NCBI GenBank assembly: GCA_944321505.1
Contig: CALULN010000014.1
Span: 1 to 64,000 of the forward strand
Length of the DNA: 64,000 bases
DNA from: Candidatus Methanomethylophilaceae archaeon
GTDB taxonomy: Archaea > Thermoplasmatota > Thermoplasmata > Methanomassiliicoccales > Methanomethylophilaceae
Direction: 5' to 3'
Both the position numbers and the translations under genes were made by a program. Positions 3,100-27,267 of this stretch are shown in pieces (the stretch's first letter is position 1; the number at the start of each line of letters is the position of its first letter). Below the pieces are notes generated by a model. The model did not search any database, was not told the DNA's origin, and was given only the letters and a program-made list of their open reading frames with translations.

Positions 3100-3115
3100 T
3101 CGCTTTCCGACAACC

Positions 3116-8829: not shown

Positions 8830-8877
8830 GCGCACGTCTGCGCGGATAAGGGGTTAACGGCTGAGGCTACCTGTAGC

Positions 8878-10684: not shown

Positions 10685-10804
10685 TTCTCTTACCGCCCAT
10701 AGGTGGGTATTGGCGCCCCCTACGACGTCGCCTTATAATAATATGCCCCCGCGCATGCGCGAGAGACCGCACCAATCATATATGGAATCGGGGATGCGTA
10801 GGCC
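10685..10804. promoter_or_regulatory. Divergent promoter region fbp / aspS
   Basis: A 120-nt divergent intergenic region. On the plus strand TCATATATGG (10776-10785) sits about 25 nt before the aspS ATG at 10805, so aspS should be leaderless. On the minus strand the TTATTATAAGG stretch near 10735 is the likely TATA box of fbp and would leave a leader of about 25 nt. A palindromic GCGCATGCGC lies between the two at about 10750-10759. Confidence 0.55.
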
Positions 10805-12112: not shown

Positions 12113-12186
12113 GGGGATTCGGCCGTATTCGGCCACCTCCCCTTTCCAACTTTATATACCATTTAGCCACTGGATGAATCGGTAAG

Positions 12187-12726
12187 ATGGGAGCGCAGGG
12201 GGATCTCTACGAACGCGAGCTGAAGCATCTCCTGTCCGGGGATGCGGCAGTCATCGAGAAGGTCATAAAGACCTGTACGGATCAGGAAGCGGAGGCCTAC
12301 CGCTCGCTCGTCGACACGCCTTTCATGGTCGTCCGGGCCGCCGGGTCCCACGGAGTCGACCTCATCGCCCTCAGATGGGACTTCTCTTTCCCGATAGAGG
12401 TCAAGAGCTCCGGGGACTTCGTCCTGCACTTCAGCCGCAATCCGCGCCTCGGAGAGCAGGCCGAGAACATGGCGATCGAGTGTGCCAGATCCCAGCTGCT
12501 CCCCATCTATGCCTTCCGTCTGAAGAAGTCCGGCGGCAACGTCAAAGGGGATCCCTGGAGGCTGTTCTGCCTGCCCGTGCCGGAGGACCTGCGGGGCCCT
12601 GCGGGGCTGCTGCAGCGCAGGATACCCTGCATGTGCAGGGGCCCCAGCGGGAACCTGATCATGAGGTGGGAGGAGGGCATGAAGCTCTCGGATTTCGTCC
12701 GCTACGCGAACATGAAGATGGAGTGA
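12187..12726 (+). CDS. Hjc-like Holliday junction resolvase/nuclease
   Basis: A 179-residue protein with the archaeal Hjc/PD-(D/E)xK nuclease pattern: an N-terminal GDLYERELKHLL (acidic residue on helix 1), VVRAAGSHGVDLIAL (Asp58) and FPIEVKSS (Glu71, Lys73). Hjc cuts four-way DNA junctions during recombination. This protein is longer than typical Hjc (about 120-140 residues): it has extra sequence between the first helix and the catalytic strand, and a C-terminal extension of about 60 residues. It could be a divergent Hjc or a paralogous nuclease. A TATA box CTTTATATACC lies at about 12149-12158. Confidence 0.75.
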   Translation: MGAQGDLYERELKHLLSGDAAVIEKVIKTCTDQEAEAYRSLVDTPFMVVRAAGSHGVDLIALRWDFSFPIEVKSSGDFVLHFSRNPRLGEQAENMAIECARSQLLPIYAFRLKKSGGNVKGDPWRLFCLPVPEDLRGPAGLLQRRIPCMCRGPSGNLIMRWEEGMKLSDFVRYANMKME

Positions 12727-12813
12727 GGGGCCGTCGGCACTCATAGGGCTCATCATCGGTCAGCCTCGGTCTGTCGTCATCCGGCACACCCTCGGCCGAA
12801 GAATCCCGCCTGC

Positions 12814-13719
12814 CTATTTCATCTCTGTCATCCTGCGGACAGGGTTCTGCGCAGCCGTGATAACATCGGCAGGGAGCGTGACCTCGCCGGACATGTCATC
12901 CAGGCAGCGGGCGATGTCATCAAGCCCTATGCGCTTCATGGGCTCGCATACAGCGGATTCGATGAAATGGAACCTCTTCCCCGGCAGCTCGGACTCCAAA
13001 CGGTGCCTCATGCCGGTCTCGGTGACGATTACGAACTCATCCGCATCGGAGGTGCGGCAGAACCTCAGCATATCCTCCGTGGATCCGACGAAGCCCACCA
13101 TGTCCAGGACTTCCGTTCTGCATTCGGGATGGGCCATGGAAGGGGCGCCGGGATGCTCCTCGATCACTCTGCGGACGTCATCGGCGGTGATGCGGTCGTG
13201 TATGGGGCAGCAGCCGTTCCAGAGGACCATCCTCCTGTCCGGCAGCCTCTTCGAGATGTAGGAGCCCAGGTTCCTGTCTGGTACGAAGAGCACCTCGTCG
13301 TCTTCGGCCAGCGAGGAGACGACCTTCAGGGCGTTGCCGGACGTGCAGCAGATGTCCATGTGGGACTTGGCTTCCGCGGTGGTGTTGACGTAGCCCACCA
13401 CAACGGAATCGGGATGCTCCTCCCTTGCCTTCATCAGGTCCTCCGCGCTGCACATGGCCGCCATGTCGCATATGGCGTCGGGCACCGGCAGCAGGACGGT
13501 CTTCTCCGGAGACAGTATCTTGGCGGTCTCACCCATGAAGCTGACGCCGCAGAACACGATGACTTCGGCGTCAGTCCGGGAAGCGGCGATCGACAGTCCG
13601 AGGGAGTCCCCGACCAGGTCCGCTATGTCCTGCACCTCGGGGGATGTGTAGTTGTGCGCCAGGATCACAGCGTTCCTCTCAGCCTTGAGCTGACGTATCC
13701 TTTCGGCCGTTCCCGCCAT
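12814..13719 (-). CDS. nadA: Quinolinate synthase
   Basis: A 301-residue NadA, an Fe-S enzyme that condenses iminoaspartate with dihydroxyacetone phosphate to quinolinate in NAD biosynthesis. Characteristic segments are ILAHNYTSPEVQDIADLVGDS, FCGVSFMGETAKIL (first cluster Cys), CCTSGNA and MAHPECRTEV (further cluster Cys). Size and order match the family. It ends in TAG; a readthrough (pyrrolysine) product would be only about 18 codons longer, so the annotated end is preferred. The 88 nt between its stop and the upstream nuclease gene show no gene. Confidence 0.95.
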   Translation of the reverse strand: MAGTAERIRQLKAERNAVILAHNYTSPEVQDIADLVGDSLGLSIAASRTDAEVIVFCGVSFMGETAKILSPEKTVLLPVPDAICDMAAMCSAEDLMKAREEHPDSVVVGYVNTTAEAKSHMDICCTSGNALKVVSSLAEDDEVLFVPDRNLGSYISKRLPDRRMVLWNGCCPIHDRITADDVRRVIEEHPGAPSMAHPECRTEVLDMVGFVGSTEDMLRFCRTSDADEFVIVTETGMRHRLESELPGKRFHFIESAVCEPMKRIGLDDIARCLDDMSGEVTLPADVITAAQNPVRRMTEMK

Positions 13720-13808
13720 GGGCGTTCATCGACAGCACGTAGTTAAAGGAATCGGATTGGCTACCGGCATGCGCAACGGCCTTATAGGGCGTCCATCTAG
13801 GCGCATTC

Positions 13809-14192
13809 ATGGACGGCAGAGAGGAGCTTGCTTCATCCAGGTTCCATTGCACGGCTTCCGAGAGATGCGCATTCGAAACCGGCATCAAATTGGCTACAGT
13901 GTACCATCAGTTCGTCGGCACCCCATTCGACGCCTCCTCCGTGGAGGGTCTTGAGGAATGCATACGCAGATGCATCTCCGCCCAGCCGTACGTGGTCGGT
14001 GCATCGGTGTCCATCGACCGCTCCGTCATACCTGCCGACAGGGACGTGTACAGCTACGTCTCCCTCACCGGCGACATGATCGATGCGACGGTTACCGTGT
14101 CCTTGGACGGTGTGACCATGACCGGCGAGATGCGCTACGACCGCGAGCTCGGCTATCCGCTCATGTACATATCCTCGACGGCCACGGATTGA
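13809..14192 (+). CDS. mptD: Archaeal dihydroneopterin aldolase MptD
   Basis: A 127-residue protein matching the archaeal MptD family, which cleaves 7,8-dihydroneopterin to 6-hydroxymethyl-7,8-dihydropterin and glycolaldehyde in methanopterin biosynthesis. The diagnostic stretch is CAFETGIKLATVYHQFVGTPF, and the C-terminus has the conserved YDRELGYPLMYI. Length fits the family. A TATA-like CCTTATAGGG lies about 25 nt before the ATG, so the gene is probably leaderless. It is transcribed away from nadA. Confidence 0.85.
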   Translation: MDGREELASSRFHCTASERCAFETGIKLATVYHQFVGTPFDASSVEGLEECIRRCISAQPYVVGASVSIDRSVIPADRDVYSYVSLTGDMIDATVTVSLDGVTMTGEMRYDRELGYPLMYISSTATD

Positions 14193-14304
14193 CCCCTATT
14201 CCATGGGTGAATATTGCCAGCAGCCGTGCGGCGGATGTACAAAACAGAACCGCTTTATAAATAGGTGAAGCGCCATCCAGCATCACTAGCGCGTGTGGGT
14301 GCAC

Positions 14305-14853
14305 ATGATTTCTGACATAAAGATTGGCATTACTGGACTGCCGGGCGCCGGGAAGACCTACGCCCTTATGCAGGTCATCGAGATGCTCCAGCAGAGCGGC
14401 GAGGTGACCATCGGCGGGATGATCGACGAGCCTATCATGGAGGGGCGCCGCCGCGTCGGCTTCCTCTGCCGCGACCTGATGACCGGAAGGACCGAGACCT
14501 TCGCCCATCTGGACTACGAGAGCCGCATAATGGTGGGCAAGATCGGCGTGGACGTTTCCAAGCTGGATTCCGTCGCCGTCGAAGCCATCCTCAACGCGTG
14601 CGAGTGCTGCGACATCATCGTAATCGACGAGGTCGGGAAGATGGAGGTGGAGAGCGAGAGGTTCGTCCAGGCCGTCAGGGACGCCCTGGATGTGGACAAG
14701 CCCATGATACTCACACTCCACAAGAAGTCCCGCAACCCCCTGCTCCAGGACATCCGCCGCCGCGACGATGTCCGCATCCTGGAGGTCACACCCACCAACC
14801 GCAACCTCCTGCCCCACAAGATCGTGAGGCTCATGAACGGTGAGAACATCTGA
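14305..14853 (+). CDS. THEP1-type nucleoside-triphosphatase
   Basis: A 182-residue P-loop NTPase of the THEP1 family. Walker A is GLPGAGKT near the N-terminus; IIVIDEVGKMEV contains Walker B; the C-terminal VTPTNRNLLPHKIV is typical of the family. ATG 14305 is preferred over a GTG four codons upstream because it places the P-loop close to the N-terminus as usual. The TATA box TTTATAAATA is near 14254-14263. The stop overlaps the trm1 start by 1 nt (TGATG). Its cellular role is uncertain, with hydrolysis of NTPs shown only for relatives. Confidence 0.88.
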   Translation: MISDIKIGITGLPGAGKTYALMQVIEMLQQSGEVTIGGMIDEPIMEGRRRVGFLCRDLMTGRTETFAHLDYESRIMVGKIGVDVSKLDSVAVEAILNACECCDIIVIDEVGKMEVESERFVQAVRDALDVDKPMILTLHKKSRNPLLQDIRRRDDVRILEVTPTNRNLLPHKIVRLMNGENI

Positions 14854-15950
14854 TGGACAGCGTCAGGATCACCGAGGGGTCGACGGTCCTCAAGGTCCCC
14901 GCCGCGCATTCCGCCGGCGGCCCCGGGAAGATCCTCGGAACCGTGTTCTTCAACGAGCAGATGGCGTTCAACAGGGACGTCAGCGTGATGCTCCTCAGGT
15001 CCCTGGACAGGGACATGTCCGTGGCGGACTGCATGACCGCCACCGGTGCCAGAGCGGTCCGCATAGCCAACGAAGCACCCAAGACCATGGTCGCCGCCAA
15101 CGATATCAACGCCGGCGCCATCCCCTGGATCGAAGGGAACATCCGCATCAACGGGCTTACCAACTGCAGAGCGGTCCGCAGCAATCTCCACTCACTGCTT
15201 GCGGAGGAGGTCTTCGACTACATCGACCTGGATCCCTTCGGCTCCCCGGTGCCGTTCCTCCATTCGGCCATCCAGGGATGCAAGCGGAAGGGCATACTCG
15301 CCATCACAGCCACAGACACCGCCCCTCTAGCCGGTGCCCATCGCGCCAAGTGCGAGCGCAGGTACCAGTCCCGCCCCATGAGAGGGCCGATGTGCCACGA
15401 GACGGGGCTGCGCATCCTCATGGCCACCGTCGCCAGGGAGCTGGCCAAGTTCGACAGGGGGATGACACCCATCATCTCCTTCTTCGCCGACCACTACTTC
15501 CGCACATACGTGAGAGTGGACGAGGGCACCGCCGCCGCAGACAGGTGCCTCGGCACCCTGGGATACCTTTCCTACGACCCGTCGACCCTGGAGCGTTCCG
15601 TCTCCCCCGAGAAGGACGGCAGCCACGTCTACGGGCCGGTGTGGACCGGGAGCCTGTTCGACAGGGATGCCCTGAAGGCTCTGGACCCGTCAGGCATGGC
15701 CGACGAGCGCCGCTGCCGCAGGATGCTGGACCTCTGGTCCTGCGAGCTCGATTCGGTGCCCTTCCTATACGAGGTCTCCGAGCTGTCCTCTGCTCTCAGG
15801 ACGGAGACCCCCAGGTTCTCGAAGCTGCTGGAGGTCATGAACCAATACGGCACCGCGACTCCGACGCATATGTCACCCACCGCATTCAAGACCGTGCTGT
15901 CACCGGAGGAGGTCCGTGATGCATTCCTCGAGACCGTCGCCTCCCATTGA
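14853..15950 (+). CDS. trm1: tRNA (guanine(26)-N2)-dimethyltransferase
   Basis: A 365-residue archaeal Trm1 that methylates N2 of G26 in tRNA using S-adenosylmethionine. Visible features are the FFNEQMAFNRDVSVMLLR segment, the SAM-binding ADCMTATGARAVR and the catalytic-type DYIDLDPFGSPVPFLHSAI. Further on, LAITATDTAPLAGAH and KCERRYQ are family hallmarks. It is translationally coupled to the THEP1 gene upstream. Length is normal. Confidence 0.95.
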   Translation: MDSVRITEGSTVLKVPAAHSAGGPGKILGTVFFNEQMAFNRDVSVMLLRSLDRDMSVADCMTATGARAVRIANEAPKTMVAANDINAGAIPWIEGNIRINGLTNCRAVRSNLHSLLAEEVFDYIDLDPFGSPVPFLHSAIQGCKRKGILAITATDTAPLAGAHRAKCERRYQSRPMRGPMCHETGLRILMATVARELAKFDRGMTPIISFFADHYFRTYVRVDEGTAAADRCLGTLGYLSYDPSTLERSVSPEKDGSHVYGPVWTGSLFDRDALKALDPSGMADERRCRRMLDLWSCELDSVPFLYEVSELSSALRTETPRFSKLLEVMNQYGTATPTHMSPTAFKTVLSPEEVRDAFLETVASH

Positions 15951-15972
15951 TTGGTTTATATAGAATCGGGTC

Positions 15973-17298
15973 ATGGCAAACCCCGGTAACATGCCGACCG
16001 TTGCGATCATTGGCGCCCAGTGGGGCGATGAGGGTAAGGGCAAGATCACTGACTACCTGGCCGAGGGCGCTGACGCCGTGGTCAGATTCCAGGGTGGCAA
16101 CAACGCCGGCCACACCATAGTCGTGGGCGACAACGTGTTCAAGCTCCATCTCCTCCCTTCCGGGGTCCTCCGCGAGGGGAAGCTTGCGGTAATCGGCAAC
16201 GGTGTCGTCGCCAACTTCCGGGACATGGAGGAGGAGATCAGGCAGATAGAGGAGGCCGGCCTCTCCATAGACGGGCTCCGCATCTCCGACAGGGCCCATC
16301 TCATCATGAACTACCACAAGAAGCTGGACGGCGCCGAGGAGGTCTACCGCGGCAACAAGCCCGTGGGCACCACCAAGAAAGGCATAGGCCCCTGCTACCA
16401 GGACAAGGCCGCCAGGATCGGCTTCAGGGCCGGGGACCTCCTGGAGCCCGACACCATCCGCGAGAAGGCATCCTACGTCCTCCCCATGAAGAAAGACATC
16501 ATGGACCTCATGGGCGCGGAGAAGTGCCAGTGCACCGTGGAGTCCTTCACCGAGAGGCTTGTAGGCTGGGGTGAGAAGTACGGCAGCCACATCTGCGACA
16601 CCTCCGTCCTGGTCAACGACATCATCGACAGGGGAGGCAACGTCCTGTTCGAGGGCGCCCAGGGCGTGATGCTCGACATCGACCACGGCACCTATCCCTA
16701 CGTCACATCATCCTCCACCGTCGGCGGAGGCATCTGCTCCGGATCCGGCGTGGCACCCAACCGCATCCAGAAGGTGGTCGGCTGCCTGAAGGCCTACACC
16801 ACCCGTGTGGGCGAGGGTCCCTTCGTCACCGAGCTCACCGGGGAGGAGGAGCTGGAGCTGCAGAAGAAGGGCGGTGAGTTCGGGGTCACCACCGGCAGGG
16901 GCCGCAGATGCGGCTGGCTGGACCTCGTGGTCGCCGAGCACGCCGCCAGGCTCTGTGGCATCACCTCCTGGGCGGTCACCAAGCTGGACGTCCTGAACGA
17001 TTACGATACCATCAAGGTCTGCGTGGCCTACGAGATCGACGGCGAGGAGGTCAGGCACTTCCCCGCCTCCGTCAAGAAGCTCATGAGGGCCAAGCCCGTG
17101 TACGTCGAGCTGCCCGGATGGAAGGGCTGGGAGGAGTCCGAGGACGTCCTCCGCCAGGGATTCGACTCCCTGCCCGAGAACATGCGCAGGTACATCGGAT
17201 TCATCGAGGACTACACCCACATCCCTGTGGACATCATCAGCGTGGGACCCGAGCGTCACGAAACCATCGACCGCACCGGCGGCGCCTGGTGGAGCTAA
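15973..17298 (+). CDS. purA: Adenylosuccinate synthetase
   Basis: A 441-residue PurA that forms adenylosuccinate from IMP, aspartate and GTP in AMP synthesis. The N-terminal AQWGDEGKGKITDYLAEGAD contains the P-loop-like GDEGKGK; RFQGGNNAGHT is the IMP-binding region; TTGRGRRCGWLDL is the conserved C-terminal loop. A TATA box GGTTTATATAGA only about 20 nt before the ATG gives it its own leaderless promoter. Its end overlaps the convergent NUDIX gene by 4 nt. Confidence 0.97.
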   Translation: MANPGNMPTVAIIGAQWGDEGKGKITDYLAEGADAVVRFQGGNNAGHTIVVGDNVFKLHLLPSGVLREGKLAVIGNGVVANFRDMEEEIRQIEEAGLSIDGLRISDRAHLIMNYHKKLDGAEEVYRGNKPVGTTKKGIGPCYQDKAARIGFRAGDLLEPDTIREKASYVLPMKKDIMDLMGAEKCQCTVESFTERLVGWGEKYGSHICDTSVLVNDIIDRGGNVLFEGAQGVMLDIDHGTYPYVTSSSTVGGGICSGSGVAPNRIQKVVGCLKAYTTRVGEGPFVTELTGEEELELQKKGGEFGVTTGRGRRCGWLDLVVAEHAARLCGITSWAVTKLDVLNDYDTIKVCVAYEIDGEEVRHFPASVKKLMRAKPVYVELPGWKGWEESEDVLRQGFDSLPENMRRYIGFIEDYTHIPVDIISVGPERHETIDRTGGAWWS

Positions 17299-17864: not shown

Positions 17865-17944
17865 GGGGTGAGTGAGGGTCCCTTCGTATATCGCGGTTTC
17901 CCATGTTCAAAAGCGATATATCGCCGGCATCCGTTCATGGCCCG

Positions 17945-19279
17945 ATGACAGGGGAGATCACCGTCAGCCAGTTCAACGAGAGGGTCAAAGGGCTCCTCGG
18001 TTCCGCTGACATGCTCCACGACATCTCGGTCGTGGGGGAGATCTCAGAGTACAAGACCGCCAGCTCCGGACATGTGTACCTCACTCTCAAGGACAGGGAT
18101 TCCGCCGTTTCGTGCACGCTTTTCCGTTCGGCCGCCTCGCGTCTCTCCTTCCGCCCTGCTGTAGGGATGAAGGTTGTGGCCTTCGGCAGCGTGTCGTTCT
18201 ACAGTCCCAGAGGGAGCCTGGGATTCAACATCCTGGGGATGGCGCCCTACGGCAAGGGGGAGCAGCAGAAGGCCCTGGAGGAGCTCACAGCAAAGCTGCT
18301 CAAGGAGGGCCTGTTCGATCCGGAGCGCAAGCGCCAGGTGCCCAGGTACCCCAAGGTGATAGGGGTGGTGACCTCACGCACCGGCGCCGTCATCAGGGAC
18401 ATCATAGACACCGCCTCCCGCAGGTTCCCCGCAGACATACTCCTGGCTCCCGCACAGGTCCAGGGGGAGGGAGCGGACGTCTCCATCGTGAAGGGGATAG
18501 AGCTGCTGAACAGGGAGGGCGTGGATGTGATCATCGTCGGTAGGGGAGGCGGTTCCGCCGACGACCTCTCCGCTTTCAATTCGGAGATCGTCGTGAGGGC
18601 GGTATGCGCTTCCAGGGCACCCGTCATATCAGCGGTGGGACACGCCATCGACAAGTCCCTCACAGACCGCGCTGCGGACAGGTACGCAGAGACCCCAACC
18701 ATGGCCGCCACCATCGCTGTGCCGGAGCTCGAGGGAGAGATGCGCCGGGTGGACGCCCTGGATATGAGGATGTCCTCGTCGCTGAACGCCGTGCTGGAGA
18801 GGATGAGGTCCCGCTTCGGGATGTATGATTCCCGGCTCCGTCCGGAGTCCGCTCTTCGCGAGATCTCCGGGAAGCGTTCTCAGGTCGAAGCGCTCTGGTC
18901 CGCCGCTGGATCGGTGGTCTCGAGGAAGGTTTCCGGAGCATCGTCATCATTCGCCAGGGCGGACTCCCGTCTGGACCCGTCCAGGGCGGCGGATGCCATC
19001 GCCAGGCTACGGGAGGCGCTGGCTTCGATCGATGCCAGGGTGTCAGCATCCGCATCCCTGGCGATGGAGCGCAGGGCATCCGCATTGTCCGCCCTCTCGG
19101 ACCGCCTGCGCTCGGACGATCCCTCCAACGTGCTGGGGAGGGGATACAGCTACATAACCGACGGAAGCGGACGCGCCGTCGGATCGGCTGTGCAGCTGTC
19201 GCCGGGGACCACGGTGACCGTGCGCATGAAGGACGGTTCCGCCAAGGCGGAGATACAGGAGGTGAGCATCGATGGATGA
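17945..19279 (+). CDS. xseA: Exonuclease VII large subunit
   Basis: About 444 residues, XseA, the large subunit of the bacterial single-strand-specific exonuclease VII. The N-terminal OB-fold with VVGEISEYKTASSGHVYLTL is clear. The core contains VIGVVTSRTGAVIRDI, IIVGRGGGSADDLSAFNSE and the SAVGHAIDKSLTDRAADRYAETPT region, followed by a coiled-coil C-terminal part and ending in LGRGYSYITDGSGRAV. An earlier ATG at 17903 lies before the palindromic TATA box (GCGATATATCGC, 17913-17924), so transcription should begin at the second ATG, 17945. It overlaps xseB by 8 nt. Confidence 0.92.
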   Translation: MTGEITVSQFNERVKGLLGSADMLHDISVVGEISEYKTASSGHVYLTLKDRDSAVSCTLFRSAASRLSFRPAVGMKVVAFGSVSFYSPRGSLGFNILGMAPYGKGEQQKALEELTAKLLKEGLFDPERKRQVPRYPKVIGVVTSRTGAVIRDIIDTASRRFPADILLAPAQVQGEGADVSIVKGIELLNREGVDVIIVGRGGGSADDLSAFNSEIVVRAVCASRAPVISAVGHAIDKSLTDRAADRYAETPTMAATIAVPELEGEMRRVDALDMRMSSSLNAVLERMRSRFGMYDSRLRPESALREISGKRSQVEALWSAAGSVVSRKVSGASSSFARADSRLDPSRAADAIARLREALASIDARVSASASLAMERRASALSALSDRLRSDDPSNVLGRGYSYITDGSGRAVGSAVQLSPGTTVTVRMKDGSAKAEIQEVSIDG

Positions 19280-19508
19280 GAAGAGACCTGAGGAGATGAC
19301 GTTCGAGGAGAGCCTCGACAGGCTGAACGAGCTGGTGGAGCTGCTGGAAGGCGGCACCCTGGACCTCAACGGGAGCATAGAGGTCTACGAGCAGGCAGTG
19401 GCCCTGAGGGACAGGTGCAGGAGCATCCTCGAGGACGGGGAGCGCCGCATTCAGGCCATAATGGAGAAGGCCGACGGCACCGTGAAGGACGACCTGGTCA
19501 TCGGCTGA
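19272..19508 (+). CDS. xseB: Exonuclease VII small subunit
   Basis: A 78-residue XseB. The family pattern is evident in MTFEESLDRLNELVELLEGG, GTLDLNGSIEVYEQAVALRDRC and the short helical C-terminus. The start overlaps the end of xseA. Several copies of the small subunit normally assemble with one large subunit. The gene ends 11 nt into the convergent methyltransferase gene. Confidence 0.93.
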   Translation: MDEKRPEEMTFEESLDRLNELVELLEGGTLDLNGSIEVYEQAVALRDRCRSILEDGERRIQAIMEKADGTVKDDLVIG

Positions 19509-20262
19509 CCGGGTGCCAGCAGTGCACGGTCAGGGAGTTCTCCCAGTCGTAGACGTAGTAGCCGTCCTCGATATAGGGGTCCATCAGCTCCCGCACGACG
19601 TCTGAGACGTCCTCATCCACGCCGTTGGCGCGGAACGCGGTGCATTCCCTGGATACAGCCTCGTCCACGGGTATGCGGGCCCTGACCCTCTCGGTGAAGG
19701 TCTCGGTGAGGCGCTCCCTTCCGTTGTCATCCAGCCATTCCGCCACTGCGGCGGCCTGGCGGTTCACCGGACGTTCGATCCCCAACGATTCCCATACGGC
19801 CGTCCTGAGCCTCTCCCCTCCGTGGAACCTCCAAGATACCGTGGCGCAGCTCTCCCTGGCGGCGCCCTCCATCCTGCGGAGAGATGCATCGGTGTCCGGG
19901 AACGGGCACAGGGATGCTATGCAGGCGGCGTATCCTTTCTTCGGGATGTATCTCCCCCAATCCTGATGGAACAGCTCGATGTTCGTCAGACCCTTCTCCT
20001 TCGCGCCTGCGGAGAGCCTTGCGAGCATGCGCTCCGACGAATCCATGCAGGTGAGGATCCTGACTTTGGGAGCGAGTTCAAGGGAGTAGGTGCCCGGTCC
20101 GGAACCAACCTCCAGCACCGAGTACTCAGGCCTCAGATAGCCGGTCTCCAGCATCCGATCCACTATCCTGCCGGGCATGGAGCCCTGCTGATAGGATGAG
20201 TATCCCACGGCGTACTCGTCCCAGTACCTGATGCGGTCGTCTGAGCCCTCCTGCTGCCTCAT
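19498..20262 (-). CDS. SAM-dependent methyltransferase, last gene of the PARIS-like operon
   Basis: A 254-residue class I methyltransferase. Motif I is YSVLEVGSGPGTYSLELA, with the acidic residue of motif II in LTCMDSSERML. The C-terminal half (WRFHGGERLRTAVWESLGIE, DVVRELMDPYIEDGYYVYDW) does not point to a known substrate. The start at 20262 overlaps the stop of the DUF4435 gene as ATGA; upstream in-frame ATGs would lie inside that gene. It is the fourth gene of a tightly coupled operon behind an SBF-type transporter, an AAA ATPase and a TOPRIM protein. It could be a modification or self-protection enzyme for that system, or unrelated cargo. Confidence 0.8.
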   Translation of the reverse strand: MRQQEGSDDRIRYWDEYAVGYSSYQQGSMPGRIVDRMLETGYLRPEYSVLEVGSGPGTYSLELAPKVRILTCMDSSERMLARLSAGAKEKGLTNIELFHQDWGRYIPKKGYAACIASLCPFPDTDASLRRMEGAARESCATVSWRFHGGERLRTAVWESLGIERPVNRQAAAVAEWLDDNGRERLTETFTERVRARIPVDEAVSRECTAFRANGVDEDVSDVVRELMDPYIEDGYYVYDWENSLTVHCWHPVSR

Positions 20263-21116
20263 GGCTCCCTCCATAGCGTCATGCCGTTGGCCTTGCACCA
20301 ATCCGCTGTGTTCCTGTATAATTCCGTCTCCGCGAACATGCGCAGGTCGTAGGTCATCCTAAGGGCGCCCCCCACCTCGCCTTCCCTGATGTTCTTGGAG
20401 TTGTATGCGCCGAAGGTCTCCCTGAATCCTATGACAAGGATGTCCACCAGGTCGTGCCCTCTGCACACGGACTCCGGGGGATGCTTCCGCTTCAACTCGT
20501 CGGAGAGCATGTCCTTCAGCTCTCTGCTGTCGGTACGGCGGTACTTGGTGTTGGACAGCACCTCCCGTATCAGGGATGATGTGTCGCAGGAGAGCGAGCG
20601 GGTGTCGATGAAGCTGTAGAAGTCCAGGTCCTTGAACGACAGGTTGAGGGACTTCCTGCTGCTGATGTACATGAGCAGACCTATCGGATACGCTGCCTGG
20701 AGCACCCTGCCCCTTATCGGACCGTACCTCTCCTCGAATGCTTTGATGCTCTCGCGCTCACCGTACTCCCAGAGGATGCTGTCGAAGGCCTCGGACATGA
20801 CGATCATGGACTCCGCATCCCTGGTGTCCGTTTCGAACACCGGTCCGTCGGCGGATCCGTGGCGGAGGATGTCCAGATCCGCATCCGCTATCCCGATCAC
20901 CTTCCGGTCGTTCCTGGATTCGCGGCAGGTGCGGACGGATTCCACGACCTTGTCCTTGCTGTGGGCTATCACCAGCTCCACCTGGTCCTCTACCGTGAAC
21001 TTGCCGTAGAGGCGGAAGTCCGTTATGCCTTCGACGACCAGTATCGTCCCTTTGAAGGCGGACCTCATCATGCAGACCGTGTTGGCCACATCGGAGGATG
21101 TCAGGTATTCGCGCAT
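20259..21116 (-). CDS. DUF4435 TOPRIM protein, AriB-like
   Basis: A 285-residue protein with the DUF4435 layout: GTILVVEGITDFRLY (Glu29 of the TOPRIM motif), then a strand ending in KVIGIADADLD (Asp78, Asp80, Asp82), then ETDTRDAESMIV. In the PARIS anti-phage system the effector AriB is a DUF4435 TOPRIM nuclease activated by the ATPase AriA. Here the ATG (21116) follows directly on the stop of an AAA/ABC ATPase gene (TGA-ATG), the arrangement expected for an AriA/AriB-like pair. A methyltransferase starts inside its stop codon. That it is a nuclease effector is inferred from family and context; the catalytic residues appear intact. Confidence 0.75.
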   Translation of the reverse strand: MREYLTSSDVANTVCMMRSAFKGTILVVEGITDFRLYGKFTVEDQVELVIAHSKDKVVESVRTCRESRNDRKVIGIADADLDILRHGSADGPVFETDTRDAESMIVMSEAFDSILWEYGERESIKAFEERYGPIRGRVLQAAYPIGLLMYISSRKSLNLSFKDLDFYSFIDTRSLSCDTSSLIREVLSNTKYRRTDSRELKDMLSDELKRKHPPESVCRGHDLVDILVIGFRETFGAYNSKNIREGEVGGALRMTYDLRMFAETELYRNTADWCKANGMTLWREP

Positions 21117-22145
21117 TCAAGCCCTCAGCTCGTTGGAGCGGTCCCACATGTCGTGTATCACCTGCGGCGAGTGGGTGGCGGCGACGATCTGCAGGTCCCT
21201 GAGGCGGCAGACGTCCATGAGCACCTTGCCCAGCCTCTGCTGCCAGGACACGTGTATGGATATCTCGGGCTCATCGATGATGGCCAGGGCACCGTGGGGG
21301 GTCTGGAACAGCAATCTGTAGAACACGATGATGATGTGCTTCTCCCCGGAGGAGAGGACCTCCAGGGGGATGTGGGAGCCGTTGTTGAGGGTGATCTGCA
21401 TCTTGCCGTTGGAGATGGACAGCCTCTTGTTGACGAAGAATGAGTTCACTATGTCCTGGAACACGACGATGGACTCCGCCAGGTCGTAGCAGTCGGCTAC
21501 GTACTCCTCCACGGCGCGGGTGAGCCTGAGGTAGCTGTCGTGTGATTTGTGGATGTCGTACCTGGAGGGGGCCATGCGCAACCCCACGGGCAGGTTCATC
21601 CTCAGCCCTGCGGAGTACATGAAGTCGGTCTTGGGCTTCAGGTCCGCCAGCCGGGATTCGATGTCTGCATCGGACATGTCATCGCCGGGGGATGTGGCTG
21701 CCACGTCGATCGCCGTCTCCTCCTTCGCCGAGAGGAACCTGTCCTCCAGCTCGTCGGCGTACACGTCGATGGCGTACATCAGGCGTCCGTCCTTGCGCTT
21801 CACGGTGAGCCTCTCCGGGGATACGTAGACCGCGGGGAGGATGGTCTCGAGGTCGTATCTCCCGAGCCTCTCCTCCAGCTCGTTCTTCTGCATCTGAACA
21901 AGCAGCTCCTCTCCGTTCTCGACGATTAGGATGGATCCGTCATCGAATCCAAGGTCCAGACGGGTGAAGGGGACGGCTTTGACCTCGACGGTGTATCCCC
22001 TCAGGATCCCGTAGATGAGCTTGAGGAAGATGCTCTTGCCCATGCCGTTGGTTGAATGGACGAACGTCACACCATCGGGGTCCAGCTCAATCCTGTGGTC
22101 GTACACGCCGAAGAGGCCGGTGACTGTGGCGGAGACGAGCTTCAT
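21117..22145 (-). CDS. AAA/ABC-type ATPase, AriA-like
   Basis: A 342-residue ATPase of the AAA_15/AAA_21 (OLD/RecF-like) group. Walker A reads HSTNGMGKS near residues 30-38, where the usual first Gly is replaced by Ser31. The ABC signature is VLSSGEKHIIIVF, Walker B ALAIIDEPEISIHVSW, and the switch His is in AATHSPQVIHD. It is somewhat shorter than described AriA proteins. It overlaps the upstream transporter by 4 nt and abuts the DUF4435 gene downstream. In PARIS such an ATPase assembles into a cage-like sensor that releases AriB; a similar role here is inferred. Other ATPase-DUF4435 defence pairs are an alternative. Confidence 0.78.
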   Translation of the reverse strand: MKLVSATVTGLFGVYDHRIELDPDGVTFVHSTNGMGKSIFLKLIYGILRGYTVEVKAVPFTRLDLGFDDGSILIVENGEELLVQMQKNELEERLGRYDLETILPAVYVSPERLTVKRKDGRLMYAIDVYADELEDRFLSAKEETAIDVAATSPGDDMSDADIESRLADLKPKTDFMYSAGLRMNLPVGLRMAPSRYDIHKSHDSYLRLTRAVEEYVADCYDLAESIVVFQDIVNSFFVNKRLSISNGKMQITLNNGSHIPLEVLSSGEKHIIIVFYRLLFQTPHGALAIIDEPEISIHVSWQQRLGKVLMDVCRLRDLQIVAATHSPQVIHDMWDRSNELRA

Positions 22146-23065
22146 CGCATGGGAGAAGCGGATTCCGCGCTATTATCACTTCCCTTGTCCCGGGTGACGA
22201 CGGAGAACCACAGCGTCTCGAATATGATGGCGAGGAAGCAGGGGATCACCGACTCGGGGGCCAGCAGGATCATGGCCATGGACACCGACAGCCCGGTGTT
22301 CTTCCAGACACCCATCACAAGGTAGACGGTGTACGTATCCCTCCCGAAGCCGATCCTCTTCACAACGAATCCGGTGAGGAGGTGGAGCACCGCTATGCGG
22401 ATTATGACAACGGCGGCTATGGACAGGACGAAGGAGACGTTGTCCATGATGTAGGCGTGGTTGGCGTTGACGGAGAAGAACACCATCAGCGCCATCATGA
22501 TGTTGATGACGGGGACCTTGGCGGTGCGGCTGAGATGCAGGTACTTCAGGGGGCGGGAGACCACCACGGGTATGATGATGAACAGGCCGATGTACCTGAG
22601 GATCTCCAGCGGGTTGACCGCATCGCCCAGCAGCATGAACGATATGAGCGGCGTCAGCACGATGCCGGCCGCATAGGTTGCGGTGACGCCCATCACCGCT
22701 GCGCCCACGTTCCCCCTGACGAGGATGGCGGCGGTGACAACCGATATCGCGCAGGGCATGGATGCCAGCATGACCCAGCCGTGCCAGATGTCGGGGTTGG
22801 ATTCGATGTATATCAGCCCGAACAGGAGGGTGATGGCTGTGTTCAGGACATAGCACAGCAGCACCGACATCACGGCGCCGCCTCCGTGCTCCGCGAAGTT
22901 CTCTCTGCTGATGGTCAGACCGTCAAGGGAGAGGGTCATCTGGATCATCAGCGCGATGACGATGAGGGTGGAGGAGTCGATGTCCAGAGGCTCCATGAGG
23001 AGGCTGAGGGCAATGGCCAGGATCACCCAGAACCGCAGGTCCATTAGGAGGTCCGATGCACGCAT
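22142..23065 (-). CDS. SBF/BASS-family transporter (sodium symporter-like)
   Basis: A 307-residue membrane protein with about nine to ten hydrophobic segments. It resembles the bile acid:sodium symporter fold (SBF/BASS, including ACR3-like and YfeH-like proteins), for example WVMLASMPCAISVVTAAILVRGNVGAAVMGV and the repeated VYLVMGVWKNTGLSVSMAMILL in the second half. The substrate is unknown. A TATA-like GGTAAATAGGG lies about 25 nt before the ATG, so it leads the operon whose later genes are the AriA-like ATPase, AriB-like protein and methyltransferase (4-nt overlap with the ATPase). A transporter at the head of a defence-like operon is unusual; it may simply be the original owner of the promoter. 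Confidence 0.78.
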   Translation of the reverse strand: MRASDLLMDLRFWVILAIALSLLMEPLDIDSSTLIVIALMIQMTLSLDGLTISRENFAEHGGGAVMSVLLCYVLNTAITLLFGLIYIESNPDIWHGWVMLASMPCAISVVTAAILVRGNVGAAVMGVTATYAAGIVLTPLISFMLLGDAVNPLEILRYIGLFIIIPVVVSRPLKYLHLSRTAKVPVINIMMALMVFFSVNANHAYIMDNVSFVLSIAAVVIIRIAVLHLLTGFVVKRIGFGRDTYTVYLVMGVWKNTGLSVSMAMILLAPESVIPCFLAIIFETLWFSVVTRDKGSDNSAESASPMR

Positions 23066-23187: not shown

Positions 23188-24030
23188 ATGGATACTCAAT
23201 CGGTCTATGACAGCATAACCGAGGACGTGAAGAACGGCGCTATCGATTCCGTGTTCCCCAAGGTGGAATCCATCCTCGCGGAGCACCCCCACGATCCGAT
23301 GGAGCACATCAAATGCGCCTCCCTTCTGAAATCCATCGATCTGGAGTCCGAATGCCAGGGGATCCTGGACCGTGTCGTCTCCGATCCGCCGGAGGATCCC
23401 GCGGAAAGGCAGGCCGTCGCCGTGGCCTTGCGCAATCTCGGCCGCTCCGAGGAGGCCTTCGACATTGTGCGCTCTCTCCCAGAACCGGACCCGTACGAGC
23501 TGGCCATGTGCATGCACTCCGTGGGAGAGGATGAATCCGCACTCTCCGTCATCCGGGAGAGGGGTCTCTCCGACCGCGATTCGAGGATACTCCTCTGCGA
23601 GTGCCTGTGCTCCGTCGGAGAGCATGCCTCCGCACTCAGGGAGGCCGAGGCGCTGTACTCAGACATCGGCGGTGAGTACGATGTGCTGGTCAACCTGGCC
23701 ACCACCATGGTCCGCGGCGGCGACGCCAAAGGTGCCGCGAAATTCTTGAAGGACCTCATGAAGCACGACAAGAAGGACCTGGATGTTATGGCAGCTTTCG
23801 CCCGCATCATGCTGCTCACCGGGAAGATGCCGGCCGCGGTCAACTACTCAGTGCGCGTGGTCAACACCGACGGCACCCATCTTGGGGCCCTTGAGACCCT
23901 GGCCATGTGCCATGTGGAGAAAGGCTCCTACGGCCATGCCAAGATCATCGCCGGACGCATCAACGAGCTGGATCCAGGCAACCCCGCTTCGGTCCGCATC
24001 ATCGACGCCTGCCGCATCATGGGTTCCTGA
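23188..24030 (+). CDS. TPR-repeat protein
   Basis: A 280-residue protein made of helical, tetratricopeptide-like repeats, for example DPAERQAVAVALRNLGRSEEAFDIV, DVLVNLATTMVRGGDAKGAAKFL and KKDLDVMAAFARIMLLTGKMPAAVNYS. There are no membrane segments or enzymatic motifs, so it probably serves as a protein-interaction scaffold in the cytoplasm. A TATA-like element (CCATTTAGTACGG) lies about 28 nt before the ATG. Its 3' end overlaps the convergent trkH by 14 nt. Confidence 0.75.
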   Translation: MDTQSVYDSITEDVKNGAIDSVFPKVESILAEHPHDPMEHIKCASLLKSIDLESECQGILDRVVSDPPEDPAERQAVAVALRNLGRSEEAFDIVRSLPEPDPYELAMCMHSVGEDESALSVIRERGLSDRDSRILLCECLCSVGEHASALREAEALYSDIGGEYDVLVNLATTMVRGGDAKGAAKFLKDLMKHDKKDLDVMAAFARIMLLTGKMPAAVNYSVRVVNTDGTHLGALETLAMCHVEKGSYGHAKIIAGRINELDPGNPASVRIIDACRIMGS

Positions 24031-25516
24031 TGCGCCTTATCCCGCTCATCATCCATGCCTTCCAGAACCCGGGCGTGAGGACGAGCACCGCCATTATGAC
24101 CTCCAGCCTGCCTATCCACATCAGCAGGCAGAGGACCAGCTGGATCCAGGGGCCCAGCTCGATGGCCGTGAGCTCGAACAGTCCCGAACCGACCGTTGAC
24201 AGCGAGGCTATCGACAGGGCTATGGAGCTGGAGAAGTCCATGGTGTTCGTCAGGAGGGAGATGGCGCCGGCCCCGATGGCCGCGATGATGAGGAACAGCA
24301 CCGCGATGATTATGGATGAGTAGACGACGTTGCTGTCCGCATCCTTCCCGTGGTCCTTTATGCTGTACACGGCGTTGGGGCTGGTGGAGAGCCTCACCGT
24401 CCCCAGGATGACCTGCGCTATGAGCTTCAGGCGGTGGATCTTCAGCCCTCCGGTCGCGGAGTTCGAGCATCCCCCGATGAGGCCGACGATCGAAAGGAAG
24501 ATGACCGCCGTCTCCGGCCAGTTGACGTAGTCTGCCACGAACCCCGTGGTGGTGGCCACCGAGAGCGCGTAGAACAGGGTGTCGAAGAACGAGTCGAAGC
24601 CGTCGAAGCTGTATCCGGCACGGGACAGCAGGATGACAAGCAGCACGATCACAACCGCGAACCAGACGAGCATGTACCTGAGCTCGCTGTCCTCTCTGAA
24701 GGGCTGCAGGGACCTCTTGGTCACGGCGGTGAAGGTTGTGATAAGGTTGGTGGAGGCGATGACCATGAACACCGCGATCACCGCCTTCGACGCCATATCC
24801 AGGGACACGACCTCGTCGTCGGCTACGGCGAACCCGGTGGTGGACGCGGTGCTCATGGAGAGGCACACCGAATCCAGGAAGCTGTTACCCAGTGCGGTCA
24901 GGATGACCGCTTCCACCAGGGTTATGGCGGCGTAGAGGGCGGCGAACCTCACCGCCAGGGTCTTCATCCTGTTGGTGAAGATCCTGGATTCGCTGAGGAG
25001 GTCGGAGGAGAAGAGGTATCTGCCCCCTAGGCCGAAGACCGTAAGGAACAGCGTGAACACGCAGATGAAACCGATGCCTCCGAGCCAGCCCGTCAGGGAC
25101 CTCCAGAGGAGCATCGAGCCGGGCATGGATTCCAGGTCCTCGATGCATGTTATGCCGGTGGTGGTGAACCCGCTGACGGACTCGAACACCGCATCCATGG
25201 GGGCGAGGCCGTAGGCGAGGTACGGTATCGCGCCGGAGACGCAGGCCAGGAGCAGCACCAGGGAGACCGTGGCGACCCCCTTCAGGGGGATGACCTTATC
25301 CGGAGTGCGGAACGCCATCAGGAGGGCCAGCCCGATGACGATCAGCGCGGCGGACGATCCTCCGATGGCCGCGGCGGTGCCGTCGGGGCATCCCATGATG
25401 CCGAAGCAGACGGTCATGGCGATGCCGATGGCCAGGAGGACGTACCCGCCCACGTGGAGGGGGAACGATTGGAAAGGCGCCTTGGAGGACAGGTCCTGCA
25501 GGAACTCATTGAGCAT
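24017..25516 (-). CDS. trkH: Trk potassium uptake membrane subunit
   Basis: A 499-residue TrkH/KtrB-type potassium channel subunit with multiple membrane helices and the four selectivity-filter loops, among them SVSGFTTTGITCIEDLES, STASTTGFAVADDE and SVATTTGFVADYVNWP. The last third contains FELTAIELGPWIQLVLCLLMWIGRLE, typical of TrkH. The ATG overlaps the end of trkA by 11 nt, so the gating subunit is made first. Confidence 0.94.
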   Translation of the reverse strand: MLNEFLQDLSSKAPFQSFPLHVGGYVLLAIGIAMTVCFGIMGCPDGTAAAIGGSSAALIVIGLALLMAFRTPDKVIPLKGVATVSLVLLLACVSGAIPYLAYGLAPMDAVFESVSGFTTTGITCIEDLESMPGSMLLWRSLTGWLGGIGFICVFTLFLTVFGLGGRYLFSSDLLSESRIFTNRMKTLAVRFAALYAAITLVEAVILTALGNSFLDSVCLSMSTASTTGFAVADDEVVSLDMASKAVIAVFMVIASTNLITTFTAVTKRSLQPFREDSELRYMLVWFAVVIVLLVILLSRAGYSFDGFDSFFDTLFYALSVATTTGFVADYVNWPETAVIFLSIVGLIGGCSNSATGGLKIHRLKLIAQVILGTVRLSTSPNAVYSIKDHGKDADSNVVYSSIIIAVLFLIIAAIGAGAISLLTNTMDFSSSIALSIASLSTVGSGLFELTAIELGPWIQLVLCLLMWIGRLEVIMAVLVLTPGFWKAWMMSGIRRIRNP

Positions 25517-26864
25517 CGGTCACACCGTGGTTGATCTGGGATCTGAAGAGCTTCTCCAGCTTGGAGATCTTGACGTTGTAGGTGAACATCAGGACCTTGT
25601 CCCCCGGGAGGTACTGCACATCCATCCTGGGGAAGATCCTCCTGTCTCCGCGGAGTATGCATGCAACCCTGCTGCCGGACGGCAGCTTGACGTCGCCCAT
25701 CAGCTGGGATGCGACGCTGGATTCCTCCATGACATTGATGCTGAAGAAGAGCTCCCCGTCGTACTTCATGCGCAGGATGGCCTCAGAGTCGGAGACCAGG
25801 GTCTTCGTGATCTCGTTGGCCACCACCGTCTGGTACCCCAAGGTGGACTGGATGCCGGTGAAGTCGAAGATGTCCTCGTATTCTGTGAGGGAGTAGCTGG
25901 CGACGATTTTCCTGGCGCCCAGCTTCTTGCCCATGAGGCATGCGAGGAGGTTGGTCTCGTCGGAGGACGAGAGGGCAAGCACAACATCGGACCTCCCTAC
26001 ATTTTCCATGTTCAGGAGGTGGGGGTCTACGGGGCTCCCGTTGACGACGATGACGCTGCTGAACTGCCTGGCCATGCGCCTGCAGACCTCGGTGTCCGGC
26101 TCGATCAGCTTCACGTAGCGCTTCTTGCCCTGGAGCAGGCGGGCGGTATGGGCGCCGGTGACGGTGGCTCCCAGGATCACGAACTCGTTGGCCTCGCGGG
26201 GGCAGCCCATCATGGTGTTGAACGCGTCTATGCCCTCGGGGGTCCCCAGGACGCAGATCCTGTCCCCTTCGTGTATCTCCACGGTCTCGTTGTCCAGTAT
26301 GACCTCATCGCCGCGGTAGATGGCCACCACGCCGACGTCCGGAGGGATGTCGAGGCCGATGACCACTTTGCCGATGATGTCGGGGTTGCTGCGGGTGACC
26401 AGGAACGTGGCCAGCCCCATCCCCATGGACTCGATGGACTCGTAGTCCACGGCGTTCTCCAGAGTGGCGATGGTGGCCAATAGGCTGGCGCTGAGGAGCT
26501 CGGGGGAGAAGATCTGGTCGATGCCCTCGAAATGCCCCTTGTCCCCGGGGACGTAGTCCGGGTCGACCACTCTGGCCACCGTCTTGACATCGGGATCGAT
26601 CTGCTTGGCCAGCATGCATATGAAGAGATTGACGTCGTCCTGTTTCGTGGTGGCGATGACGACGTCGGCCCGGTGCCTCTCTATGGCCTCCCTGAGGATC
26701 TTCGGGTTGGAGCCGTTCTCGTTGAACATGGAGACGTTGAGCAGGGATTTCACCCTCTCGGCCACCTGCGTGTCGTTCTCCACGATCATGACGTCGTTGT
26801 TGTGGGAGAGGACCTCCGCCACAGTGAATCCGACCTTCCCGGCACCGATAATTATTATGTTCAT
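25506..26864 (-). CDS. trkA: Trk potassium uptake gating subunit
   Basis: A 452-residue TrkA with two RCK units. Each begins with a Rossmann NAD-binding motif: MNIIIIGAGKVGFTVAEVL at the N-terminus and FVILGATVTGAHTARLLQG in the second half. Each is followed by a TrkA-C domain (for example IIGKVVIGLDIPPDVGVVAIYRG). The start at 26864 is chosen because it sits right at the Rossmann motif; upstream in-frame codons overlap the intergenic gap. It regulates TrkH according to NAD(H)/ATP state in relatives. Confidence 0.94.
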   Translation of the reverse strand: MNIIIIGAGKVGFTVAEVLSHNNDVMIVENDTQVAERVKSLLNVSMFNENGSNPKILREAIERHRADVVIATTKQDDVNLFICMLAKQIDPDVKTVARVVDPDYVPGDKGHFEGIDQIFSPELLSASLLATIATLENAVDYESIESMGMGLATFLVTRSNPDIIGKVVIGLDIPPDVGVVAIYRGDEVILDNETVEIHEGDRICVLGTPEGIDAFNTMMGCPREANEFVILGATVTGAHTARLLQGKKRYVKLIEPDTEVCRRMARQFSSVIVVNGSPVDPHLLNMENVGRSDVVLALSSSDETNLLACLMGKKLGARKIVASYSLTEYEDIFDFTGIQSTLGYQTVVANEITKTLVSDSEAILRMKYDGELFFSINVMEESSVASQLMGDVKLPSGSRVACILRGDRRIFPRMDVQYLPGDKVLMFTYNVKISKLEKLFRSQINHGVTDAQ

Positions 26865-26877
26865 CGACACACACCGC

Positions 26878-27267
26878 TCATTCTTCCGACGGGCTGTAGT
26901 TGCGGTACCTGAGATAGGCCACAACCGCTCCGATAATGCAGAGGACGATGAGGAGCAGGCAGATCGCCAGGAACACGTTGACGTACGAATCCCCGAACCC
27001 GCCCTGGTACGAGGAGTCCAGGAACGTGTCGGTGGTCAGGTAGGTGAACATCTCGGACACGTAGTGGACGGCATCTCCGGCCATCTGGGGTGAGAACACG
27101 GTGCCGAAGTCCTCCATGAACGTGTCGAGGGAGTAGTCGGGCAGCTCCACGGTGGAGAACACATCTCCGAGTGACGGCGGCTCCGATGCGGATGCATCCG
27201 AAGGAACCGCGGCAATGAACAGGAATGCCGCCATCGCGACCAGCGCCACCGCAGCTGTCTTCCGCAT
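26878..27267 (-). CDS. Small secreted/membrane-anchored protein upstream of trkA
   Basis: A 129-residue protein of unknown function. It has an N-terminal signal peptide (RKTAAVALVAMAAFLFIAAVPSDASA), a ~70-residue acidic extracytoplasmic stretch rich in aromatic and hydroxyl residues, and a C-terminal membrane helix (VFLAICLLLIVLCIIGAVVAYL) ending in a short cytoplasmic tail. The stop is 13 nt before trkA, so it is the first gene of a three-gene trk operon. It might be a small accessory subunit of the potassium transporter, but no family was recognised. Confidence 0.7.
   Translation of the reverse strand: MRKTAAVALVAMAAFLFIAAVPSDASASEPPSLGDVFSTVELPDYSLDTFMEDFGTVFSPQMAGDAVHYVSEMFTYLTTDTFLDSSYQGGFGDSYVNVFLAICLLLIVLCIIGAVVAYLRYRNYSPSEE

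What the first reader, a model, noticed from the sequence alone, without database searches (positions are those of the whole stretch)
19498..23065. PARIS-like ATPase/DUF4435 pair in an archaeal four-gene operon with a transporter and a methyltransferase
Seen: four minus-strand genes overlap or abut at every junction (ATGA, TGA-ATG, ATGA): SBF-type transporter, an ABC-type AAA ATPase, a DUF4435 TOPRIM protein with intact Glu and DxDxD residues, and a SAM methyltransferase. Known: the PARIS defence system is AriA (AAA/ABC ATPase) plus AriB (DUF4435 TOPRIM nuclease). Inference: this may be an archaeal PARIS variant, with a shorter ATPase, a Ser replacing the first Walker A Gly, and two extra coupled genes that could sense a signal or protect self targets.
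Basis: partly seen in the sequence, partly recalled or inferred. Interest (0 to 1): 0.75.

Follow-up and report, generated by a model that had tools for sequence, protein, structure and literature searches.

The report
PARIS-like gene pair fixed in archaea
Two neighbouring genes here resemble a bacterial virus-sensing suicide system (PARIS), but instead of being scattered by mobile DNA they sit as one fixed copy in most members of a family of archaea, so they may be a permanent built-in alarm or may have taken on an everyday job.

Summary
The four genes are as described, but the unit is two genes. The ATPase–DUF4435 pair is PARIS-like: the ATPase profile's best solved relative is AriA (116 vs 48 bits); the models match AriA (Z 24.7) and AriB (Z 14.7) best. 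The SBF transporter belongs to one genus, the methyltransferase to 2 of its 6 genomes. DUF4435 is single copy in 92 of 102 genomes of the archaeal family (42 of 45 high-quality) and 1 of 45 others of the order, at one locus beside TPR and xseB (each 37 of 40), under purifying selection. Bacterial relatives are patchy (7 of 196; 3 of 249; source included); one lies between CRISPR arrays. Best reading: a PARIS-type ATPase–toxic nuclease module fixed by descent, its ATPase about 95 residues shorter. A resident antiviral suicide system is likelier than a domesticated nuclease; nothing here settles it. Some genomes of one genus lost the nuclease or both genes, so it is dispensable there. Five paper searches showed no account of it.

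The parts
21117..22145 (-). AriA-like ABC/SMC-type ATPase, 342 aa (first gene of the conserved pair)
   Evidence: AAA_21 50.8 bits; PADLOC AriA 88.4 bits; profile A2 best PDB hit AriA, E 2e-32; model pLDDT 92.6, best match AriA 8v46_B Z 24.7, rmsd 6.4, 326 aligned
20259..21116 (-). AriB-like DUF4435 TOPRIM protein, 285 aa (second gene of the conserved pair)
   Evidence: DUF4435 40.0 bits; PADLOC AriB 61.9 bits, its only hit; model pLDDT 95.2, best match AriB 8ux9_A Z 14.7, rmsd 4.4, 257 aligned, next OLD TOPRIM Z 7.7
22032..22055 (-). Walker A of the ATPase, residues 31-38 (S-T-N-G-M-G-K-S)
   Evidence: sequence; Ser or Ala at the first position and K37 in 39 of 39
21342..21353 (-). ABC signature of the ATPase, residues 265-268 (SSGE)
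   Evidence: S265, G267 and E268 in 39 of 39
21264..21284 (-). Walker B of the ATPase, residues 288-294 (AIIDEPE)
   Evidence: D291 and E292 in 39 of 39
21018..21032 (-). TOPRIM Glu motif of DUF4435, E29 to D33 (EGITD)
   Evidence: E29, G30, D33 invariant in 39 rows and, as E30, G31, D34 of L111, in 15 rows that include plasmid and phage DUF4435 proteins
20871..20885 (-). TOPRIM acidic motif of DUF4435, D78-D80-D82
   Evidence: D78 and D80 invariant in 39 rows and in the 15-row set
22142..23065 (-). SBF-like transporter, ATGA overlap with the ATPase; addition of this genus
   Evidence: PF01758 24.5 bits, cut-off 24.3; upstream of the ATPase in 6 of 6 genomes of the genus and in 3 of the 40 loci, all of that genus
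19498..20262 (-). SAM methyltransferase, ATGA overlap with DUF4435; at this place only here and in G117
   Evidence: PF13649 37.3 bits; directly downstream of DUF4435 in 1 of 40 loci; 58% identity and dN/dS 0.28, against 79% and 0.17 for DUF4435, in the same genome pair
19272..19508 (+). xseB (exonuclease VII small subunit), convergent flank of the locus
   Evidence: on the downstream side within about 1.1 kb of DUF4435 in 37 of 40 loci; name recalled from sequence
17903..19279 (+). xseA (exonuclease VII large subunit)
   Evidence: synteny; distribution; name recalled from sequence
23188..24030 (+). TPR-repeat protein, divergent flank
   Evidence: TPR_19 45.2 bits; on the upstream side in 37 of 40 loci, with other genes between in some
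24017..25516 (-). TrkH-like cation transporter in the conserved block
   Evidence: TrkH 88.5 bits; present in 34 of 40 loci

Best explanation
The ATPase and DUF4435 genes form a two-component, PARIS-type (AriA-AriB-like) ATPase-nuclease module that has become fixed in one family of archaea (Methanomethylophilaceae, inferred from the named relatives) and is inherited vertically at one chromosomal site. By analogy with PARIS, the ATPase is the sensor and scaffold that holds the TOPRIM protein inactive; a trigger releases it, it dimerises and cuts RNA, probably tRNA, and so arrests growth of the infected or stressed cell. Shown here: homology, predicted folds, intact catalytic residues, the coupled gene pair, one locus, purifying selection, a shortened ATPase. 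Inferred: complex, release, RNA target, antiviral role. The SBF transporter and the methyltransferase are late, lineage-specific neighbours and not parts of the core mechanism.
For: Best solved relative of the ATPase profile is AriA, E 2e-32, 116 bits against 48 for the next family. ATPase model against AriA Z 24.7, rmsd 6.4, 326 aligned; next fold (SMC head) Z 19.3. DUF4435 model against AriB Z 14.7, rmsd 4.4, 257 aligned; next (OLD TOPRIM) Z 7.7. Catalytic acids shared with DUF4435 proteins next to an ATPase on four plasmids and one phage. Pair adjacent in 40 of 40 loci and coupled in 39 of 39. DUF4435 in 92 of 102 family genomes, ATPase in 95 of 102. dN/dS 0.07-0.17 for both genes in 6 chosen genome pairs. 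Distances track HisD (r 0.84 and 0.87). For a defence role: a Bacillota relative (G878) lies between two CRISPR arrays beside cas6, cas1, cas2 and cas4. Dispensable: G029 and G030 lack the pair with both flanks intact.
Against: Family-wide fixation, housekeeping neighbours and an ordinary rate (mean patristic distance 1.54 and 1.50, against 1.41 for XseA, 1.42 for TrkA, 1.97 for TPR and 0.66 for HisD; row sets differ) are unusual for an antiviral system. DUF4435 does not find AriB by sequence in the PDB set, alone or as a 25-row profile, although plainly mobile relatives also fail. Its PADLOC AriB score (61.9) is below those of a clostridial, a phage and a plasmid relative (77.0, 82.4, 159.0). 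The ATPase lacks about 95 residues of the longer forms, which could remove a sensing or assembly surface. DUF4435 distances track XseA less well (r 0.57). No relative was found on viral contigs. Trigger, complex and target were not tested.
Confidence: 0.58

Rival explanations
1. Domesticated housekeeping enzyme: the pair descends from a PARIS-like ancestor but now serves ordinary RNA turnover, stress response or DNA repair in this family.
For: Core-gene distribution (42 of 45 high-quality family genomes), fixed locus with housekeeping neighbours, purifying selection, ordinary rate, no family genome with two full copies, no viral-contig relative by a pattern scan. A clostridial family also carries a relative (9 of 24 genomes, source included) in a partly shared chromosomal neighbourhood (six loci).
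Against: Lost in part of genus g5: both genes in G029 and G030, the nuclease alone in G028, so it is dispensable at least there. A relative between CRISPR arrays and relatives on plasmids and a phage point to defence in the wider family.
Confidence: 0.27
2. Four-gene PARIS variant: transporter and methyltransferase sense a signal or protect self targets.
For: ATGA overlaps at both outer junctions; SBF upstream in 6 of 6 genomes of the genus and itself under purifying selection (dN/dS 0.15).
Against: SBF in 3 and the methyltransferase in 1 of 40 loci; the methyltransferase in 2 of 6 genus genomes, with the lowest identity (58%) and the second highest dN/dS (0.28) of the 11 genes compared.
Confidence: 0.05
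3. Functional partner of exonuclease VII, which lies convergently beside it.
For: On the same side in 37 of 40 loci; all 37 genomes of the phylum sample with DUF4435 also have xseA; the one genome of the order outside the family with the pair (G008) has xseA too, on another contig.
Against: xseA occurs in 141 of 389 genomes of the phylum and 103 of these lie outside the family, where no DUF4435 was found, so exonuclease VII does not need the pair. xseA lies away from the pair in G092 (same contig, 62 kb), G080 and G093 (no xse genes in the fetched loci) and on another contig in G084. Convergent genes are not one operon.
Confidence: 0.05
4. Decaying relic of an acquired defence system.
For: Partial or complete loss in genus g5 and a 265-aa ATPase in G027.
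Against: Invariant catalytic residues in 39 rows and dN/dS 0.07-0.17.
Confidence: 0.04

Closest known systems
PARIS (AriA ABC ATPase + AriB DUF4435 TOPRIM tRNA nuclease), PMC9122126; AriB mechanism PMC12409363
   Same: Adjacent ATPase and DUF4435 genes; passes the published score rule; best fold match of both proteins; TOPRIM acids and ABC motifs intact
   Different: Shorter ATPase (342 aa here, against 464 for solved AriA); single-copy core locus of an archaeal family instead of a patchy or mobile one; no function shown
Bacillota relatives: clostridial pair (L111, L128-L133, L150) and CRISPR-flanked pair of G878 (L149)
   Same: DUF4435 of L111 is closer to the archaeal proteins (32-36% identity) than to plasmid and phage ones (20-27%)
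   Different: Longer ATPase (380-454 aa in the complete ORF calls); 7 of 196 genomes of the order; G878 has the two genes in reverse order. Both trees separate archaeal, clostridial and mobile groups, but which two are sisters depends on a midpoint root
OLD / Gabija GajA nucleases
   Same: ABC-type ATPase plus TOPRIM chemistry; OLD TOPRIM is the next fold match (Z 7.7, rmsd 5.2, 156 aligned)
   Different: There ATPase and TOPRIM are one polypeptide (recalled); here two genes, and a far weaker match than AriB
Septu / retron PtuA ATPases
   Same: Same ATPase superfamily; 48 bits or less in the PDB profile search
   Different: The partner here is DUF4435, not an HNH protein (PtuB, recalled)

Membership tests
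PARIS | ATPase (AAA_15 or AAA_21) and DUF4435 genes together, over the published bit thresholds (27 for AAA_21, 27 for DUF4435) | tested here: met
   AAA_21 50.8, DUF4435 40.0 bits; rule read in a passage of PMC9122126
PARIS | AriA fold of the ATPase | tested here: met
   AriA is best by sequence profile and by model, Z 24.7, rmsd 6.4, 326 aligned
PARIS | AriB fold and TOPRIM catalytic Glu/Asp | tested here: met
   Z 14.7, rmsd 4.4, 257 aligned; Glu and Asp invariant. That E29 is the counterpart of AriB E26 is inferred from the motif, not from an alignment
PARIS | AriA hexamer that sequesters AriB | not testable with these tools
   no complex prediction on hand; feature read in PMC11455837
PARIS | tRNA-Lys cleavage by the released nuclease | not testable with these tools
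   feature read in PMC12409363, sections 23 and 24
PARIS | Activation by anti-restriction proteins and protection against viruses | not testable with these tools
   feature read in PMC11455837
PARIS | Usual, not defining, context: patchy, mobile or in defence hotspots | tested here: not met
   DUF4435 in 92 of 102 family genomes, one locus. Controls: Peduoviridae phage, pair between cI and integrase; integrase-AlpA-DUF927-pair on a Salmonella plasmid
Four-gene SBF-ATPase-DUF4435-methyltransferase system | The four genes occur together across relatives | tested here: not met
   all four in 1 of 40 other loci
OLD / Gabija | ATPase and TOPRIM fused in one protein (recalled) | tested here: not met
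   separate reading frames in the window and in the 40 loci
Septu / retron PtuAB | HNH nuclease partner (recalled) | tested here: not met
   the partner gene in the window is DUF4435

The most novel reading that the evidence does not exclude
A PARIS-type ATPase-nuclease pair has been domesticated in Methanomethylophilaceae: a former suicide module became a core cellular system, an RNA-cutting stress or quality-control switch kept since the origin of the family, with a trimmed sensor ATPase. Automated defence annotation based on the same profiles would probably still report it as PARIS.
Probability: 0.27. Interest if true: 0.75.

Novelty: new variant of a known kind. Interest (0 to 1): 0.52.

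Why it matters
Defence systems are expected to come and go. A PARIS-type pair that is a single-copy core locus of a whole family of archaea either is a rare fixed immune module or shows how a toxic nuclease becomes a cell function. The natural deletions in one genus and ATPases of about 440, 345 and 265 aa give direct handles on which parts are needed. Surveys that call PARIS from these profile rules probably count this locus as defence, and that needs a test.

Tried and rejected
Four-gene block: rejected as the unit. Dependence of exonuclease VII on the pair: rejected. Absence in G083 and G091 as real loss: not accepted, because TrkA and xseA are missing from these assemblies too, so the whole block is unseen. 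Viral origin: one pattern scan of viral contigs gave 148 stretches and no relative; its patterns come from close kin and would miss distant ones. With the clostridial protein as query, 16 of 72,556 plasmid and 2 of 50,697 phage records match (the two phage records are one phage), surely an undercount of PARIS. DUF4435 against PDB sequences: none for the window protein, three hits that I judge chance with the profile, none for the phage and clostridial proteins. PF14491 as a genome query found 24 family genomes and G008 among 300 of the class but missed the window's own gene, so I used the protein and a profile of my own. TrkA/TrkH near the pair in archaea and Clostridia: kept as a lead only.

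Rows dropped: ATPase set leaves out L049 and L070; A1 uses 25 of the 41 DUF4435 proteins at hand and A2 24 ATPases; one search leaves out tblastn matches covering under 70% and includes G008 for both genes; trees use chosen rows: 21 family rows, G008, 5 clostridial, 5 mobile; 16 family, 4 clostridial, 4 mobile, G008 and G878. dN/dS was done for 6 chosen pairs, and several dS values are near 1.

Full report
Observation. The four minus-strand genes and their overlaps are in the sequence as described. Pfam gives SBF (24.5 bits, barely over its cut-off of 24.3), AAA_21 (50.8), DUF4435 (40.0) and Methyltransf_25 (37.3). PADLOC's best model for the ATPase is AriA (88.4 bits); its only one for DUF4435 is AriB (61.9).

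The unit. I searched 147 genomes of the order with the DUF4435 protein and with the ATPase. The window's family (f1) has 102 genomes in that set (my count of the handles). DUF4435 is found in 92 of 102 and the ATPase in 95 of 102. No family genome has two full copies; the double matches are partial pieces on different contigs. Among family genomes at least 90% complete and at most 5% contaminated, 42 of 45 have DUF4435 (my count from the rounded values; the call's tally is 43 of 74 with G008). Outside the family, 1 of 45 genomes has the pair (G008). In 389 genomes of the phylum all 37 DUF4435 matches lie in the family. Of 44 loci in the named genome collection, 43 are archaeal records with titles such as Methanomethylophilus, Methanoplasma, Methanomethylophilaceae and Methanomassiliicoccaceae, and one is a Clostridia bacterium. 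The family name Methanomethylophilaceae is my inference from these titles.

Locus. In 40 homologous loci (39 of the family and G008) the two genes are adjacent in 40, with TPR on one side in 37, TrkH in 34, and XseB on the other side in 37. Some misses are contig ends (L062, L070); others are real breaks. In 39 of 39 loci the two ORFs overlap or lie at most 10 nt apart. SBF is upstream in 3 and the methyltransferase directly downstream in 1 of the 40. SBF is next to the ATPase in all 6 genomes of the window's genus, the methyltransferase in 2 of 6. So the four-gene operon is a local elaboration of a two-gene core.

Natural losses. In genus g5, G029 and G030 have TPR and XseB side by side and no pair; G028 keeps an intact 346-aa ATPase but has lost DUF4435; G027 keeps DUF4435 with an ATPase of only 265 aa that lacks the middle part but keeps the nucleotide-binding motifs. 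The system is thus dispensable at least in part of this genus, and an ATPase can persist without its nuclease. G083 and G091 lack TrkA and xseA as well and say nothing.

Selection and descent. dN/dS is 0.07-0.17 for both genes in 6 chosen genome pairs. Pairwise tree distances track HisD (r 0.84 for DUF4435, 0.87 for the ATPase) and each other (0.74), and XseA less well (0.57 and 0.66). In the trees the family with G008 is one side of a branch (DUF4435 84/87, 99/98; ATPase 100/99). For the ATPase the family alone is also a clade (99/98); for DUF4435 the place of G008 is open, and it falls weakly (83/81) among family rows. Archaeal, clostridial and plasmid/phage groups are separate in both trees; the roots are midpoints and some branches are long, so the direction of transfer between bacteria and archaea is open.

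Fold. Models: DUF4435 pLDDT 95.2, ATPase 92.6. DUF4435 against 8ux9_A (AriB): Z 14.7, rmsd 4.4, 257 aligned; next OLD TOPRIM Z 7.7. ATPase against 8v46_B (AriA): Z 24.7, rmsd 6.4, 326 aligned; next an SMC head Z 19.3. By sequence the ATPase profile hits AriA at 2e-32 and the next family at 8e-12. DUF4435 does not find AriB by sequence in the PDB set.

Differences from PARIS. Family ATPases are mostly about 345 aa; G008 has 440 and the clostridial L111 443, solved AriA 464. Walker A begins with Ser or Ala in 39 of 39; L111 has Ala and AriA Gly at that place. [quoted passage not shown]

Bacterial relatives. The L111 type is in 7 of 196 genomes of its order and 9 of 24 of its family, the source included, in a partly shared chromosomal neighbourhood with GH94, AsnRS, SpoU and TrkH-TrkA genes (six loci; families checked in L131 only). 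In a sample of its phylum 3 of 249 genomes match, the source included, one of them weakly (28.8 bits). One, G878, carries DUF4435 and then the ATPase between two CRISPR arrays, with cas6, cas1, cas2 and cas4 nearby and a TPR-S protein with a weak cyclase match directly downstream. That favours a defence role in the wider family. Controls from mobile DNA: a Peduoviridae phage with the pair between cI and integrase, and a Salmonella plasmid with integrase, AlpA, DUF927 and the pair; the P2-like and P4-like nature of these is recalled.

Mechanism. In PARIS, AriA holds AriB; a viral anti-restriction protein releases it; AriB dimerises and cuts tRNA-Lys (PMC11455837, whole text; PMC12409363, passages and sections 23-24). 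The archaeal pair has the same two folds and the active-site acids, so the same logic is the best guess. None of these steps was tested here. Nothing found separates resident immunity from a domesticated enzyme; the CRISPR-flanked relative and the losses in g5 tip me to the first, the core distribution and ordinary rate to the second.

Literature. Searches with DUF4435, PARIS, AriA/AriB, Methanomethylophilaceae, Methanomassiliicoccales, Methanomethylophilus and archaeal defence (listings) and word searches in PMC12988326 (archaeal defence survey, no PARIS in its main text) and PMC13356809 show no account of this locus. PMC9009780 and PMC9090908 were seen in passages. Supplements and closed papers were not seen, among them the two Nature papers on PARIS structure.

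Verdict. A PARIS homologue of unusual evolutionary status: a new variant of a known kind. Whether it is resident immunity or a domesticated enzyme is the open and testable question.

Noticed in passing
L149 (G878) 22-17298: AriB/AriA-like pair in reverse order between two CRISPR arrays (65 copies in one repeat family over both arrays), with cas6-cas1-cas2-cas4 upstream and a TPR-S protein with a weak cyclase match directly downstream: possibly a CRISPR-linked PARIS variant.
   Followed up: partly
window 24017-26900; L131, L132, L133: TrkA/TrkH cation transport genes lie within about 5 kb of the pair in 34 of 40 archaeal loci (TrkH) and within about 7 kb in 3 of 6 clostridial loci (families checked in L131), but not in G008 (L109). 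May be chance.
   Followed up: partly
L140 (G027) 5768-6565: 265-aa ATPase without the middle part but with Walker A, signature and Walker B, beside an intact DUF4435.
   Followed up: no
L134 (G028) 7576-8616: Orphan AriA-like ATPase whose DUF4435 partner is gone.
   Followed up: no
L135 (G092) and L136 (G080): xseAB sits away from the pair in some genomes of genus g10 (G080, G092, G093, probably G084).
   Followed up: no
L070 (G097) 941-2944: The ATPase frame stays open for 668 codons across DUF4435 by my ORF call: a lost stop, a sequencing error or a long overlap.
   Followed up: no
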